Assembly (NCBI GenBank): GCA_937934635.1
Contig: CALGZD010000191.1
Coordinates: 1 to 6,684, forward strand
Source: an uncultured Deinococcales bacterium
GTDB lineage: Bacteria > Deinococcota > Deinococci > Deinococcales > Trueperaceae
Direction: 5' to 3'
DNA length: 6,684 bases
The position numbers were made by a program, and so were the translations under genes. This document shows, in pieces, positions 1,712-6,684 of the stretch (position 1 is its first letter; every line of letters begins with the position of its first letter). The notes beneath the pieces were generated by a model that was given only the letters and a program-made list of their open reading frames with translations, was not told the origin of the DNA and made no database searches.

Positions 1712-3142
1712 ATGAAATTTTTAAAACGAAATAGCTTTTTACTACTGTTTTTACTTTTTACAGTTAGCTTTGCACAAACTACGCTTTATCAGTCGACACA
1801 AAATCGAGATAATACCAATACGATTCTTGCAGCGGTTGTACAGATTCAGCCACAAAACGCTGATGGAAACTGGTCGGGCGAGCGTGGTTCGGGTACGGTT
1901 GTTGATGCATCAGGGCTAATTTTGACTAATTACCACGTTGTTGCTGATGCCCAAAATCAGCCCTATCAGAAACACACGATAGTTGTGACTGTTGATTTGT
2001 TTAGTGAACCACAGCCTAAATACATTGCTGAATATGCCGCTGGCGATGAAAGTCTTGACTTAGCAGTGTTGCGAATCGTGTCAGATGTTAATGGCGCTCA
2101 GGTAGGCAGCTTTCCGCATATTCCAATAAGTGATTACCGTACCCTCTATCCAAATGATGTTATTTCTATTTGGGGCTATCCTCTCATTGGTGGTAATACC
2201 ATTACGAGTTCAAGAGGGGTTATCAGTGGATTTACTGGTGAAGACTTTGTAAGTGCTGGTGATCGCTGGATTAAGACTGATGGTAAGTTTGACGGTGGTA
2301 ATTCAGGCGGTGGCGCAATTGATGTAGCTGGCAACCTCGTTGCTGTACCTACGATTTTGGTTGGACAGAGAAGAGATACTGGCATCATCGAAACGCAAAA
2401 CTTTTTGCGTCCTGCTAGTTTTGCAACGACACTCATTCAAACTGCAAGAACTGCTCCAACGACCTTTGTACAGCCAACTAGTATTACTGTTGTGCCTACC
2501 AATGAGCCAACAACAACCGCTGGAACACAGCCAGCACCACTAATACAACCTATTCAACCTGCACCACAAGCCACACAAGAAGCTCAGTCGATACAAGTTC
2601 AACCTACACAAGAGCAAGCTCAAACTCAGCAAGCTGCGGCTCAGCCAGTACAATCTGGTTCTGAACCACCTGAGGTCTTGACGACACAAGAAGCTGTGGG
2701 TATTGTGGCTGCTGATAATCCAAAAGCTTACAAGCTTGCTGTCGGTCTTTTTCAACAAAATGACCCTGCTCTAACGAGTCTCGCTGAGACGCTTTACAGC
2801 AAAGGTTATCCTGTTGGTTTAGATAACTTTGATGGCAACGTGGTAGTTTTTGTCGGACCTGTTGTTCGTCGAAACGAAATCAATGTTATGCAAAAGGCAT
2901 TAGTGAGCCTTGGTTATCAAGTAGAACTATATGGTGGTCCTGCGGGTAGTAATGCGCCTCGTAGTCAATTTGCCCCACCTAGTGCATCCGACCTAGACGG
3001 TTGTAGTGCGCCCGGTAATAGTCAAGGTAGAGGGAATGGTCAGGGTAGAGGTAACGGAAATGGTAACTGTAATGCGCCTGGTCAAGGAAATGGCAATGGA
3101 AATGGAAATGGTCGTGGCAATGGCAAAGGTAGAGGGAACTAA
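1712..3142 (+). CDS. Secreted trypsin-like serine protease with SPOR domain and Gly/Asn-rich tail
   Basis: The protein has 476 residues and the ATG is preceded by AAGGGAA at 8 nt. A signal peptide (KFLKR, then a hydrophobic stretch at residues 8-20) ends at SFA-QT, with likely cleavage after Ala21, so it is exported. Residues about 35-245 form a chymotrypsin-fold protease: His75 in LTNYHVV, Asp116 in SLDLAVL, Ser198 in GGNSGGG, which is the HtrA/DegP-like trypsin_2 pattern. No PDZ domain follows. Residues 250-322 are a Pro/Gln/Thr-rich linker. Residues about 338-410 (YKLAVGLFQQND ... LYSKGYPVG ... VFVGPVVRR ... LVSLGYQV) match a SPOR domain, a family that binds peptidoglycan strands stripped of stem peptides. 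The tail at 411-476 is almost only Gly and Asn with some Arg, and holds the two mature-region cysteines (431, 453), each followed by (S/N)APG. Inference: a cell-wall-localised protease. Substrates are unknown. Transcription probably ends at the terminator at 3181. Confidence 0.88.
   Translation: MKFLKRNSFLLLFLLFTVSFAQTTLYQSTQNRDNTNTILAAVVQIQPQNADGNWSGERGSGTVVDASGLILTNYHVVADAQNQPYQKHTIVVTVDLFSEPQPKYIAEYAAGDESLDLAVLRIVSDVNGAQVGSFPHIPISDYRTLYPNDVISIWGYPLIGGNTITSSRGVISGFTGEDFVSAGDRWIKTDGKFDGGNSGGGAIDVAGNLVAVPTILVGQRRDTGIIETQNFLRPASFATTLIQTARTAPTTFVQPTSITVVPTNEPTTTAGTQPAPLIQPIQPAPQATQEAQSIQVQPTQEQAQTQQAAAQPVQSGSEPPEVLTTQEAVGIVAADNPKAYKLAVGLFQQNDPALTSLAETLYSKGYPVGLDNFDGNVVVFVGPVVRRNEINVMQKALVSLGYQVELYGGPAGSNAPRSQFAPPSASDLDGCSAPGNSQGRGNGQGRGNGNGNCNAPGQGNGNGNGNGRGNGKGRGN
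3000..3140 (+). repeat. Low-complexity repeats coding the Gly/Asn tail
   Basis: Short GGNAAY/GGTAGAGG-type units repeat in frame and encode GN, GQGRGN and GRGN blocks. Two larger related starts, TGTAGTGCGCCCGGT (3001) and TGTAATGCGCCTGGT (3067), encode CSAPG and CNAPG, which suggests an internal duplication. Being in frame, copy number can change without breaking the gene. Confidence 0.75.
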
Positions 3143-3180
3143 AAAAAGTTAAGTAAAAATCTGTAAGTAGTTTGTTTATG

Positions 3181-3219
3181 AAAAAAGGCATTTCCTTGAT
3201 AAGGGGAAATGCCTTTTTT
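3181..3219. terminator. Strong bidirectional intrinsic terminator T1
   Basis: A perfect 15-bp stem pairs 3181-3195 (six A then GGCATTTCC) with 3205-3219 (GGAAATGCC then six T) around a 9-nt loop. It lies 38 nt after the protease stop codon. With A-run and T-run on the two sides, it can work for either strand and would stop the protease transcript. Confidence 0.92.
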
Positions 3220-3340
3220 AGCGTGGTGCTGCGCCCACGGATTTTTGCAAATATTCTAGAATAGTGGGATGTGCTTGGTTAATTATCTGATTTATATACT
3301 TTTCTATAAATGGGCGCAGCTCATGTTATGAAGTAGCTCG
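3181..3340. repeat. Structured intergenic element, copy 1 (~160 bp)
   Basis: This unit recurs at 3358-3518 in the same orientation with about 20 differences, mostly transitions, plus a 1-bp indel. In order it holds terminator T1, a short hairpin (CGTGG 3222-3226 with CCACG 3235-3239) followed by ATTTTT, a perfect 12-bp palindrome TATTCTAGAATA (3252-3263), and a 10-bp long-range inverted repeat (3228-3237 with 3311-3320). It ends with GTTAT-GAA-GTAGC, a small stem using two G-U pairs. No open reading frame of note lies in it. It could be a repeated intergenic element, a duplicated 3' regulatory RNA or a small non-autonomous mobile element. Confidence 0.85.
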
Positions 3341-3357
3341 TTAATTTCATATTTTAG

Positions 3358-3394
3358 AAAAAAGGCACTTCCTTGATAAGGGGAAATGCCTTTT
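3358..3394 (-). terminator. Intrinsic terminator T2, best read on the minus strand (for mrp)
   Basis: The stem is AAAAGGCACTTCC (3360-3372) with GGAAATGCCTTTT (3382-3394). On the plus strand it has one C-A mismatch and its T-run is broken (TTTTCG). On the minus strand the same position becomes a G-U pair and a run of six U follows (3363-3358). It therefore looks like the functional terminator for mrp, about 230 nt after the mrp stop codon. Confidence 0.7.
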
Positions 3395-3518
3395 CGTAGC
3401 GTGGTGCTGTGCCCACGGATTTTTGCGAATGGTTTAAAACAATGGGATGTGCTTGGTTAATCATCTGATTTATATGCTTGTCTATAAATGAGTACAGCTC
3501 ATGCTACGAAGTAGCTCG
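3358..3518. repeat. Structured intergenic element, copy 2 (~161 bp)
   Basis: This is the second tandem copy, 17 bp after copy 1 ends. The palindrome becomes TGGTTTAAAACA (3430-3441). The long-range helix is 3406-3415 with 3489-3498, with 8 Watson-Crick pairs, one G-U and one mismatch. The final stem becomes fully paired, GCTAC-GAA-GTAGC (3503-3515). Several differences from copy 1 fall in both partners of a pair and keep pairing. Confidence 0.85.
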
Positions 3519-3539
3519 ATACTCGCACTCCGCTCGCCA

Positions 3540-3561
3540 ATTCACTGCGACAGCAGTGAAT
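3540..3561. other. Perfect 9-bp hairpin in the convergent spacer
   Basis: ATTCACTGC (3540-3548) and GCAGTGAAT (3553-3561) are perfect inverted repeats around GACA. No T-run follows on either strand, so it is not an intrinsic terminator. It lies in the 3' region of the mrp transcript and might stabilise the 3' end or be a protein-binding site. The rest of 3519-3624 shows nothing further that I can name. Confidence 0.6.
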
Positions 3562-3624
3562 CGTGGAAGTGCTTATTCTAAGCGTTTGTAGCTTCTTAGA
3601 GGTTTCCCAAATATTCAAAACACG

Positions 3625-4674
3625 TTACAACATTGGTAGGGTATTCAAATGCTGCAATGCAACATGCCCAGCAAGCATCCTTGCAGCTTTACGCAGTTCT
3701 AAAGATTCTGGATGGTCAGGGTTGGCAATCACAAGTGGTTGTCCTTCATCGCCAGTTTCACGTATCCGTCTAGCAATAGGAATGTTGCCAAGGATAGGTA
3801 GATTTTCTTTTTCTGCAAAATCCACAGCACCACCTTCACCAAAGATGTAATCACGTGTGCCATCTGGCAATTGGTAGTAGGCCATGTTTTCAATAAGACC
3901 AAGCACAGGGATGTGTGATTTACGAAGCATACTGTGTGCTCTGCTTACGTCAGCAAGTGCCATATCTTGGGGTGTTGTTACCAGTACTGCGCCTGTAACA
4001 GGTACGAGTTGCGAGAGCGATAGCTGTACATCACCTGTACCTGGTGGAAGATCTACGATGAGATAGTCGAGTTCACCCCACAGAGATTGCTCCAGCATTT
4101 GCTTAAGTGTGCCGTGAAGAATTGGACCTCGCCAAACAAGTGCTTGACCGTCTTCAACAAGATTAGCTATTGAGATGACTTTTACACCATAGCTTTTAAG
4201 GGGCAGAATGTTTTTATCTTCATCTGCCATTAGGCGCTTACCTTCAACTTTATACATTTTGGCTTGGCTAGGACCATAGATGTCTGCGTCAAGCAGACCA
4301 ACGCTAGCACCTTCTAGAGCAAGGCTGGCAGCCAAGTTGGCAGATACCGTTGATTTTCCTACGCCACCTTTACCTGCTGCTACCGCAATTACATTTTTGA
4401 CGTCAGGAAGGGCATCTTTTTGGGCGGGGCGCACGTTACAAATGAAGTTAACATCAACGCTACCTACTTGGTTTAACTGCCCAACTACTTGTTTTATGTC
4501 AGCTTCTAAGGCAGCTTGAGCAGGAGAGTTTGGTGTCATAAGGTCAACGGTTATGACAACGCTCCCCCCAAGATTATCTATCTTATTTATCATGCCAAGA
4601 TCGACGATATCTTGTTGCATTTCTGGATGGTTGATTTGTTTTAAGGCTTGAATGATGTCTTGTTCTATTGACAT
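3625..4674 (-). CDS. mrp: Mrp/ApbC-family P-loop ATPase, cysteine-poor variant
   Basis: The protein has 349 residues. The ATG at 4674 is preceded on the minus strand by AGGAG (4688-4684) with 9-nt spacing. Residues 1-85 form an MIP18/DUF59 domain (INHPEMQQDIVDLGMI). Residues about 92-345 form the Mrp/NBP35 ATPase: deviant Walker A GKGGVGKST (101-109), switch I LLDADIYGPS (127-136), Walker B LIVDLPPGTGD (205-215), and QALVWRGP (177-184). Family members are cytoplasmic carriers in iron-sulfur cluster delivery. Oddly, the CxxC pair that many Mrp proteins use to hold a cluster is replaced by YYQLPDGT (266-273). The usual Cys of the DUF59 domain is Ser50 in LMTPNSP. The only cysteine in the protein is Cys79. 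A CxxC-less form is, as I recall, also seen in cyanobacterial and Deinococcus homologues. The gene stands alone, convergent with the protease and divergent from the pseudokinase. Confidence 0.93.
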   Translation of the reverse strand: MSIEQDIIQALKQINHPEMQQDIVDLGMINKIDNLGGSVVITVDLMTPNSPAQAALEADIKQVVGQLNQVGSVDVNFICNVRPAQKDALPDVKNVIAVAAGKGGVGKSTVSANLAASLALEGASVGLLDADIYGPSQAKMYKVEGKRLMADEDKNILPLKSYGVKVISIANLVEDGQALVWRGPILHGTLKQMLEQSLWGELDYLIVDLPPGTGDVQLSLSQLVPVTGAVLVTTPQDMALADVSRAHSMLRKSHIPVLGLIENMAYYQLPDGTRDYIFGEGGAVDFAEKENLPILGNIPIARRIRETGDEGQPLVIANPDHPESLELRKAARMLAGHVALQHLNTLPML

Positions 4675-4968: not shown

Positions 4969-6684
4969 GTGCAAGCGTCACGCTACAAAATACAAGAATT
5001 ATTAGGTACACAAGGTGCAGTTTCTACGTATCAGGGATTGGATATGTTATCCAACGAACCTGTTTTCTACTACCGCTCTCAAAATGAGCCTTTAGAAAAT
5101 GCAGGGCAGCTTCTTTCTGACAATATTCCAGATATTTTGAATATGAAGTATTCATCTGGGATGACACATGTTGTTACTGCTATTCCACCTGAGCGAAAAG
5201 TTTTAAAAGGTCGCTTGGACGATTCACAGCTCGAGCAGTTCCTCTTAGACACAGCTCAAGCACTAGAAGATGCAAGCAGCGCAGGTGTTATTCATGGCGA
5301 TATTCGTCCTGAGCGTATCCTCTTTGATGGTTCAAAGTACTTGATTGAAGGCTATGGCATACGTTGGGAACTTCTTTCAAATCGTTTTAGTGCGCCTGAG
5401 GCACAGCAACCTGAGGCACAGCAAAGCATTGCTGGTGATGTTTACAGTTGGGCGAAAACAGTCAGTGTTTTTGTGCCAAAGTCAGTTCCAAAAGCTGTTA
5501 TTAATCTGTTGAAGCGTTGTATTCAGCAAGATGCAAGAGAGCGTCCACTACCCGAAGATATTACTAAAGAACTGGGCAGTCTTTTTCTTGAAACTTCTAA
5601 AGTTAAACATCCAACGGTTATCAATTTAAAACAAACCATTGCAGATGCACAGCCAGCTTTGCTTGATAACTTATTGCCTCAAAATGAGGTTAAATCTGCT
5701 ATACAGGTTGATTCTGCCATGCAGGTTGATTCTGGTAGTGAGATTGATTCTGCCATACAGGTTGATTCTGCCATACAGGTTGATTCTGGTAGTGAGATTG
5801 ATTCAGAAGACATTGTCTTGAGTGGTGACTCTGATACGAAAATATCTGATAGGGAAACAGTAGCAGAATCTGGTAGTGAAGTTAAATCAGAGAATGTAAA
5901 CAGTACACAAGAGCGTTTAGCTAAAGCAATGAGTGTATTGAAGAATGATTCTGGGGTAAATCCTGAGTTAAATTCTGGGTCAACTGATGCTAAAAATAAC
6001 GAAATTGGCACTAGCGAAATTGGCAGTAATAAGATTGACACTATACCTTCAACTAAAGCTGCAATGCCTGAGTTAGATGTTGAAATAGAAAGTGAATCTG
6101 GGCTGGATAGTCAAGATAAGCATCTGGAAGACACAGAAAATTTGTTTTTACTAAATTCTGACGATTCTGATATAGCAAAAGTAAAGGCTAGTTCAGAGGC
6201 TCATGAAACAGAAATCACAGGCTTAGATACATTAGATACAATAGAACACAAATTTGCTTTTGATGATGTACAGGATATCAATATAGATGTTGTTGATTTA
6301 GAGGGTCAGACATCTAGTGATGTAACTAATGATTTTGATTTAGCTACTCAGGTAGATGTAAATATCTTAGACGACCTTCTTTCAGATATTGCACCTGTTC
6401 CCACTACTAAAGTGCCAGAGCAAGTAGAAGATAAAGTTAGTGATTTTGATTTTACCAGTCAAGCTGTAGGTGAGACTGAGACAAGTCCAGATTTAGAAGA
6501 GCAGGCTATTGAAAGTATTTTTGTAGAGCCTGAGGAAGAAGAAAGTGAAACTACAACAGGTTTTGATGTTTCTGGTTTAGATTTTAGCGGAGATGGTTTT
6601 AATATTGATTCCTCTTCACCTTCTGTTGCTGTTGATTTAGAGCAAGATACTGTCACTAAAGCTGCTAGTGTAGAAGATTCAAAA
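4969..6684 (+). CDS. Kinase-fold pseudokinase with long acidic repeat region, 3' end outside the window
   Basis: The frame is open from after the stop at 4915 to the right edge, 572 residues so far. GTG 4969 is the only usual start codon before the domain, with GGGG at 10 nt, and gives VQASRYKIQELLG, a typical kinase N-terminus. Residues about 5-205 resemble a Ser/Thr kinase: HGDIRPERIL (109-118, the HRD loop), EGYG (127-130, the DFG site), SAPE (141-144), GDVYSWAK (156-163), and DARERP (188-193). Key residues are lost: the beta-3 Lys is not evident (PVFYYR, 31-36), the Asn after the catalytic Asp111 is Arg116, and the DFG Asp is Gly128. This suggests no normal phosphotransfer. From about residue 208 on, the chain is rich in Asp, Glu, Ser and Thr, low complexity, with IQVDS/GSEIDS repeats (244-279) and later FDF/FDV-like motifs. 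No signal peptide or membrane segment is seen. A scaffold or regulatory role is inference; the C-terminus is unknown. Confidence 0.8.
   Translation, partial: MQASRYKIQELLGTQGAVSTYQGLDMLSNEPVFYYRSQNEPLENAGQLLSDNIPDILNMKYSSGMTHVVTAIPPERKVLKGRLDDSQLEQFLLDTAQALEDASSAGVIHGDIRPERILFDGSKYLIEGYGIRWELLSNRFSAPEAQQPEAQQSIAGDVYSWAKTVSVFVPKSVPKAVINLLKRCIQQDARERPLPEDITKELGSLFLETSKVKHPTVINLKQTIADAQPALLDNLLPQNEVKSAIQVDSAMQVDSGSEIDSAIQVDSAIQVDSGSEIDSEDIVLSGDSDTKISDRETVAESGSEVKSENVNSTQERLAKAMSVLKNDSGVNPELNSGSTDAKNNEIGTSEIGSNKIDTIPSTKAAMPELDVEIESESGLDSQDKHLEDTENLFLLNSDDSDIAKVKASSEAHETEITGLDTLDTIEHKFAFDDVQDINIDVVDLEGQTSSDVTNDFDLATQVDVNILDDLLSDIAPVPTTKVPEQVEDKVSDFDFTSQAVGETETSPDLEEQAIESIFVEPEEEESETTTGFDVSGLDFSGDGFNIDSSSPSVAVDLEQDTVTKAASVEDSK
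5395..5424 (+). repeat. 15-bp perfect tandem repeat at the APE motif
   Basis: CCTGAGGCACAGCAA occurs twice without a gap (5395-5409, 5410-5424), encoding PEAQQ-PEAQQ. It duplicates the PE of the APE motif in the kinase-like domain and lengthens the segment between APE and the GDVYSW helix. It is in frame. Confidence 0.9.
5698..5805 (+). repeat. 54-bp tandem duplication built of 18-bp units
   Basis: 5698-5751 and 5752-5805 share 51 of 54 bases. Each is three 18-bp units coding AIQVDS, A(I/M)QVDS and GSEIDS. Related degenerate units follow (SGSEVKS near 5866-5889, SEIGSNKIDT near 6013-6042). All are multiples of three, so copy number can change while the frame stays open. Confidence 0.93.

What the first reader, a model, noticed from the sequence alone, without database searches (positions are those of the whole stretch)
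3181..3518. Tandem ~160-bp intergenic element whose two copies differ by compensatory changes
The two copies (3181-3340, 3358-3518) differ at about 20 positions, and several differences keep base pairing. In the central 12-bp dyad (3252-3263 versus 3430-3441), pair 2 goes A-T to G-C and pair 5 goes C-G to T-A, both sides changed; pair 3 is broken in copy 2. In the long-range helix (3228-3237/3311-3320 versus 3406-3415/3489-3498), one C-G becomes T-A on both sides and one G-C becomes G-U, with one mismatch. In the terminal stem, two G-U pairs of copy 1 are C-G in copy 2. This pattern suggests selection for a fold after duplication, so it may be an undescribed structured RNA or repeat family. 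Caveat: only two copies, few pairs, and a 12-bp palindrome cannot itself be a full hairpin.
Basis: partly seen in the sequence, partly recalled or inferred. Interest (0 to 1): 0.72.

Follow-up and report, generated by a model that had tools for sequence, protein, structure and literature searches.

The report
Tandem pair of GTAG-REP doublets (REPINs)
The duplicated 160-bp spacer in this uncultured Deinococcus-related bacterium is two side-by-side copies of a small mobile-DNA-like hairpin pair (a REP doublet, or REPIN) behind a transcription terminator, a known kind of bacterial repeat rather than a new structured RNA.

Summary
The two copies and their differences are real. They are most likely not an unknown structured RNA. 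Each copy is a terminator-like hairpin followed by two inverted REP units (GTAG tag, 7-bp stem with or without a 1-nt bulge, 3-nt loop) 69 bp apart: a head-head GTAG-REP dimer, or REPIN, tandemly duplicated between convergent genes (protease and mrp) in a Trueperaceae-like bacterium. A covariance model of the two copies finds relatives in the nearest genome found (G001, Mrp 93% identical). A REP pattern matches G001 24 times (reversed control 0), and some dimers there are also in tandem. Across 39 REP units the local hairpin covaries. Against the G001 consensus, the terminal-stem changes are decay of GTAG tags in copy 1, and the change that breaks the long helix completes a local REP stem. The central dyad lies in a spacer without detectable relatives. 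No RAYT was found in G001, only one other Y1 transposase, so the mobiliser is unknown, and the host genome itself is not held. New member of a known kind; the papers searched showed no GTAG REPs in Deinococcota.

The parts
3181..3219 (.). Flank f1 of unit 1: perfect 15-bp hairpin with A/T tracts on both sides, reads as a bidirectional intrinsic terminator downstream of the protease gene
   Evidence: the repeat finder I1; folds in both strands.
3218..3239 (+). Left REP of unit 1: decayed tag TTAG, hairpin CGTGG(T)GC-TGC-GCCCACG, 7 of 7 pairs
   Evidence: pattern search 1 mismatch
3240..3308 (.).
3309..3329 (-). Right REP of unit 1, inverted: decayed tag ATAA, no bulge, 5 of 7 pairs; not matched by the pattern
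3330..3343 (.). Flank f2 of unit 1
3344..3352 (.). Short non-repeated stretch between the two units
3358..3394 (.). f1 hairpin of unit 2; one substitution gives C.A on the + strand but G.U on the - strand, so it still pairs in transcripts coming from mrp
3396..3417 (+). Left REP of unit 2: intact GTAG tag, hairpin CGTGG(T)GC-TGT-GCCCACG, 7 of 7 pairs
   Evidence: no mismatch to GTAGNGTGNNGCTNYGCCCA
3418..3486 (.). Spacer of unit 2
3487..3507 (-). Right REP of unit 2, inverted: intact GTAG tag, no bulge, 5 of 7 pairs; not matched by the pattern
3508..3521 (.). Flank f2 of unit 2
3522..3577 (+). Right part of a second dispersed palindromic repeat abutting unit 2
   Evidence: matches at 10 distinct places in G001 with E <= 0.13

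Best explanation
A tandem duplication of one unit, made of a terminator hairpin, a head-head GTAG-REP dimer (REPIN) and a short flank, in the spacer between convergent genes. Shown: the REP anatomy, relatives in the nearest genome found, local hairpin covariation, tandem arrangement. Inferred: the REP dimer once spread as a non-autonomous element whose GTAG-tagged single-stranded hairpins were processed in trans by a tyrosine (HUH/Y1) transposase of the RAYT kind. It settled next to the protease terminator, the segment then duplicated (slippage or unequal recombination), and copy 1 is losing its tags. What remains acts as 3' hairpins, with the two terminator hairpins ending the convergent protease and mrp transcripts.
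For: A covariance model of the two copies finds 4 matches in G001 (E 8.4e-6, 0.0012, 0.011, 0.16); of the other 110 genomes of the phylum, scored with stricter filters, 1 has a match (E 0.17) and that one lacks the REP. REP pattern, drawn from those G001 matches: G001 24 matches, reversed control 0; the other 38 genomes of the family 0-4 each, controls 0-4. A version with one base loosened to admit the window's letter matches the window twice, both left REPs, where 0.03 is expected by chance at up to 3 mismatches. GTAG exact in 33 of 39 units and in both REPs of copy 2. Local stem covariation: 205 of 224 canonical pairs in 32 distinct units against 189.8 (sd 2.4) when 3' arms are dealt anew with the bulge re-optimised, 0 of 5000 reach it; 187 of 203 for 29 G001-only units against 175.4, 0 of 5000; without the CGT subfamily 167 of 182 against 160.2, 2 of 5000. 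G001 has tandem dimers at L107 574-644 and 661-734. The f1-REPIN-f2 tandem layout matches the one described for SBW25 (passages of PMC3116915). Convergent-gene location is typical of REPs (section 15 of PMC3733652).
Against: The window's own genome is not held, so copy number there is unknown. Right REPs form only 5 of 7 pairs and do not match the pattern at 3 mismatches. Copy 1 has lost both tags. Spacers are not detectably alike between window and G001. No RAYT in G001: its only Y1 transposase is 146 aa and scores 35 bits against the RAYT cut-off of 80. At 24 pattern matches the family is small compared with the more than 100 copies per genome usual for REPs (abstract of PMC2817692). Shuffles ignore relatedness among copies.
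Confidence: 0.85

Rival explanations
1. A structured RNA (small RNA or cis element) closed by the long-range helix, duplicated and kept by selection.
For: Copy 1 folds better than shuffles even without its terminator (z -3.0 on +, -2.5 on -). Double-changed pairs are more than random placement gives. On the - strand each unit reads as body plus terminator, and the 3 promoter-like sites found lie on that strand (1.0 expected over both strands).
Against: Copy 2 without its terminator folds no better than shuffles (z -0.03 on +, -0.79 on -). The long-range helix has no within-dimer covariation in G001. Most changes in the outer helices are explained by tag decay and local stems. No Rfam family reaches its gathering score.
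Confidence: 0.07
2. Only a duplicated bidirectional terminator between convergent genes; the body between the hairpins is neutral and its palindromes are incidental.
For: Both hairpins are terminator-like; copy 2's substitution keeps pairing on the strand used by mrp.
Against: The body carries REP units shared with dispersed copies in G001.
Confidence: 0.05
3. The matched changes come from template switching or conversion between the two inverted REP arms, not from selection. This can be true together with the REPIN reading.
For: Copy 2's left outer arm, including the 1-nt indel, is the exact complement of its right arm.
Against: GTAG at both ends is the family consensus, so no switch is needed for the outer arm; left and right REPs in G001 dimers are no more alike than swapped ones.
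Confidence: 0.1

Closest known systems
GTAG-tagged REP head-head dimers (Di Nocera et al. 2013, PMC3733652)
   Same: GTAG tag, short stem with short loop, alternative complementary stem residues, inverted dimers mostly 20-100 bp apart, location mostly between convergent or co-directional genes
   Different: Phyla named there for GTAG repeats are Proteobacteria, Cyanobacteria, Chloroflexi and the PVC group; the word search found Deinococcus nowhere, and one passage names D. radiodurans only for untagged repeats. Stem and bulge here were not compared with the 24 family consensuses, which are in a figure
REPINs and their tandem clusters (Bertels and Rainey 2011, PMC3116915)
   Same: Inverted REP doublet as the unit; tandem clusters with repeated flanks f1 and f2 and a short unrepeated gap
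   Different: No RAYT found; few copies; the copies here are 87% identical (148 of 170 columns) rather than nearly identical
Bacterial MITEs with terminal inverted repeats
   Same: Short, non-coding, inverted ends; five G001 dimers also share spacer sequence
   Different: Ends are GTAG-tagged hairpins; target duplications were not tested

Membership tests
GTAG REP / REPIN | GT(A/G)G tetranucleotide at the foot of the hairpin | tested here: met
   Both REPs of copy 2 and 31 of 35 G001 units have GTAG; copy 1 has TTAG and ATAA, read as decayed. Units were chosen by likeness to the GTAG pattern, so the G001 share is partly by construction
GTAG REP / REPIN | Short imperfect palindrome with a short loop and complementary changes among copies | tested here: met
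   7-bp stem, 3-nt loop, covariation that 0 of 5000 shuffles reach; right REPs of the window only 5 of 7 pairs
GTAG REP / REPIN | Two REPs in inverted orientation tens of bases apart | tested here: met
   Spacer 69 bp in both units
GTAG REP / REPIN | Many dispersed copies in the host genome | tested here: inconclusive
   Host genome not held; relative G001 has 24 pattern matches, control 0
GTAG REP / REPIN | Extragenic location | tested here: met
   Between protease stop 3142 and mrp stop 3625; 16 of 19 G001 spans overlap no ORF of 80 aa or more
GTAG REP / REPIN | Cognate RAYT gene flanked by the same REPs | tested here: inconclusive
   None in G001, but it is a fragmented draft of unknown completeness; not testable in the host
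Tandem REPIN cluster | Repeated f1-REPIN-f2 units with a short unrepeated gap | tested here: met
   Units 3175-3343 and 3353-3521, gap 3344-3352
Known structured RNA families (Rfam) | Match at the family's gathering score | tested here: not met
   In the window two matches at E <= 1, both far below gathering score; one of them (mir-2818, 29.4 of 90 bits) is the unit 1 terminator hairpin
MITE of an IS family | Target-site duplications | not tested
   Empty sites were not available

The most novel reading that the evidence does not exclude
A GTAG REPIN family spreading in a Deinococcota lineage that has no RAYT, mobilised instead by an IS200-type TnpA or an unknown enzyme, and carrying outer hairpins along as part of the moving unit (four G001 dimers share one).
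Probability: 0.1. Interest if true: 0.55.

Novelty: new member of a known kind. Interest (0 to 1): 0.3.

Why it matters
It extends GTAG-tagged REP dimers to a low-GC Trueperaceae-like lineage of Deinococcota, where the listings and passages I saw do not report them. It also warns that apparent compensatory changes between two copies of an inverted repeat can be decay of a shared consensus. The lineage is a test case for whether REPINs persist without a detectable RAYT.

Tried and rejected
Exact-pattern scan of genome contigs for the body gave nothing, as did two scans of viral contigs, a count in the 66 loci then held and distant searches of plasmids and phages. Plain DNA search of G001, 39 family genomes (G001 among them) and 111 phylum genomes gave no full-length match. 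L042 and L043 were set aside: the two stretches are alike over hundreds of GC-rich bases and hold none of the rest of the element (by eye). Small-protein reading: seven ORFs of 20-39 aa lie wholly in the spacer; two, one per copy, share the stretch SVVL-PRIFAN but start and end differently, so I did not pursue it. Known RNA family: no. Spacer homology between window and G001: 52 comparisons, the best reached by 12 of 300 shuffles. RAYT in G001: none. Literature searches for the REP sequence gave mostly unrelated hits.

In one search a looser pattern over 111 genomes again set G001 apart (21, control 0), but several other genomes had 7-10 matches against controls of 1-6, so only the comparison with controls is used.

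The bulge position was chosen to maximise pairing; one search repeats the test with the same freedom given to the shuffles. That the G001 Y1 protein is IS200-type rests on its length, its score below the RAYT cut-off and my own knowledge.

Full report
What is in the window. The 6684-bp window holds an RNase D-like gene, a trypsin-like protease (1712-3142, +), mrp/apbC (3625-4674, -) and a kinase-like gene. The repeat lies between the convergent protease and mrp. No whole genome is held for the window. Mrp led to the nearest genome found, an uncultured Deinococcales bin (L001 = G001; Mrp 93% identical, next best 66-69%). By eye, the 3' flanks of G001's own protease and mrp hold other hairpins and not the element.

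The observation. Two units, 3175-3343 and 3353-3521, spacing 178; 22 of 170 aligned columns differ, including a 1-nt indel. With the helices taken as given, double changes exceed random placement: P 0.009 for terminal stem plus long helix, 0.098 for the long helix alone, 0.0015 for the dyad, 0.0001 for all 45 pairs; but the helices were chosen after looking and the indel was counted in their favour. With the terminator both copies fold better than shuffles (z -6.6 and -3.3 on the + strand); without it copy 1 still does and copy 2 does not (z -3.0 and -0.03).

Relatives. Plain DNA searches found no full-length relative. A covariance model of the two copies found 4 matches in G001 with E 8.4e-6 to 0.16, and 1 match (E 0.17) in the other 110 phylum genomes, which does not carry the REP; over 40 genomes the tool uses stricter filters that lose weak matches. 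The four G001 matches share inverted ends of the form GTAGGGTGG-GC-TAT-GCCCACC. A pattern drawn from these ends gave 24 matches in G001 (reversed control 0), and 0-4 in each of the other 38 family genomes, like their controls. Fifteen G001 stretches were fetched and read. With one base of the pattern loosened, the window matches twice, at its two left REPs, where 0.03 is expected; the two right REPs do not match.

Anatomy. From these I took 35 G001 units and the 4 window units. Each was read as a GTAG tag (33 of 39 exact), a 7-bp stem often with a 1-nt bulge near its middle, and a 3-nt loop. Stem pairs change type with pairing kept: pair 2 is G-C in 26 and A-T in 11 of 39, pair 5 G-C, C-G or A-T, pair 7 C-G or T-A. 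In the window's left REPs pair 1 is C-G instead of G-C. With the bulge free in the control too, 205 of 224 pairs are canonical in 32 distinct units against 189.8 (sd 2.4); none of 5000 shuffles reach it, and without the CGT subfamily 2 of 5000 do. These shuffles ignore relatedness among copies.

Local hairpin, not long helix. In 13 G001 head-head dimers, left-right pairing averages 17.77 of 21, and 17.72 (sd 0.18) when partners are swapped, P 0.45. Some dimers carry different, locally complementary stems on the two sides (L104, L116). So the long helix looks like a by-product of two inverted REPs.

Polarising the two copies. Against the G001 consensus, copy 2 keeps GTAG at both ends, while copy 1 has TTAG and ATAA. 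The terminal-stem changes are therefore most simply losses in copy 1. The C-G to T-A pair (3232/3316) joins the third loop base of both REPs, a position that differs between left and right in 5 of 13 G001 dimers. The change at 3313, which breaks the long helix, turns A.C into A-T within the right REP of copy 2. The change at 3315 costs that REP one pair. The central dyad lies in the spacer, which shows no detectable relation to G001 spacers; its two double changes stay unexplained.

Higher order. G001 also has dimers in tandem (L107 574-644 and 661-734). Four G001 dimers (L102, L106, L111, L112) have an outer hairpin just outside one tag, as both window units do; whether those hairpins are related was not shown. 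The window layout, flank-REPIN-flank twice with a 9-bp unrepeated gap, is the tandem cluster described for Pseudomonas fluorescens SBW25 (passages of PMC3116915). A second repeat abuts unit 2 at 3522-3577.

Mechanism. Shown: tagged hairpins, covariation, dispersal in a sister genome, tandem duplication. Inferred: spread by a HUH/Y1 transposase acting on single-stranded tagged hairpins, as shown for E. coli TnpA-REP, where GTAG is crucial; in two other systems changes of the tag are largely tolerated (passages of PMC8266576). The only Y1 protein found in G001 has 146 aa and lies below the RAYT cut-off; the draft is in hundreds of contigs, so absence is weak evidence. The terminator role of the hairpins is inferred from sequence: copy 1 pairs fully on both strands; copy 2's change is C.A on + but G.U on -, the strand of mrp.

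Known and new. Section 5 and sections 14-16 of PMC3733652 describe GTAG REP dimers, and a passage names Proteobacteria, Cyanobacteria, Chloroflexi and the PVC group; D. radiodurans appears in the passages seen only for untagged repeats. A 2025 survey (PMC12306157, passages only) counts REP-like palindromes in three Deinococcota genomes; the passages shown do not discuss GTAG tags there. The listed parts (20 of 62 papers; 15 of 462; 12 of 22) showed no report of GTAG REPINs in Deinococcota by title or opening abstract, and one search found no paper. I rate it a new member of a known kind.

Noticed in passing
window 3522-3577: Part of a second dispersed palindromic repeat (10 distinct places in G001 at E <= 0.13), about 105 bp with imperfect inverted ends AGCG..TCCACG / CGTGGAA..GCTT and an inner hairpin whose stem differs by complementary changes between copies; the window copy lacks the left part (by eye).
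   Followed up: partly
L102, L106, L111, L112: Four G001 REP dimers share an outer hairpin and some bases beyond one GTAG tag; with L105 they share spacer sequence, and L104's spacer looks alike in the other orientation (partly by eye), suggesting a longer mobile unit.
   Followed up: partly
L119 / L127 (G001 contig 167): Single Y1 transposase of 146 aa in G001, the only one found there, probably IS200-type.
   Followed up: partly
window 3014-3139: The protease ends in a Gly/Asn-rich repeated tail; the G001 orthologue has a similar tail.
   Followed up: no
window 4969-6684: Kinase-like N-terminus (below Pfam cut-off) followed by a long acidic, repetitive region; the orthologue on L001 is 1610 aa.
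   Followed up: no
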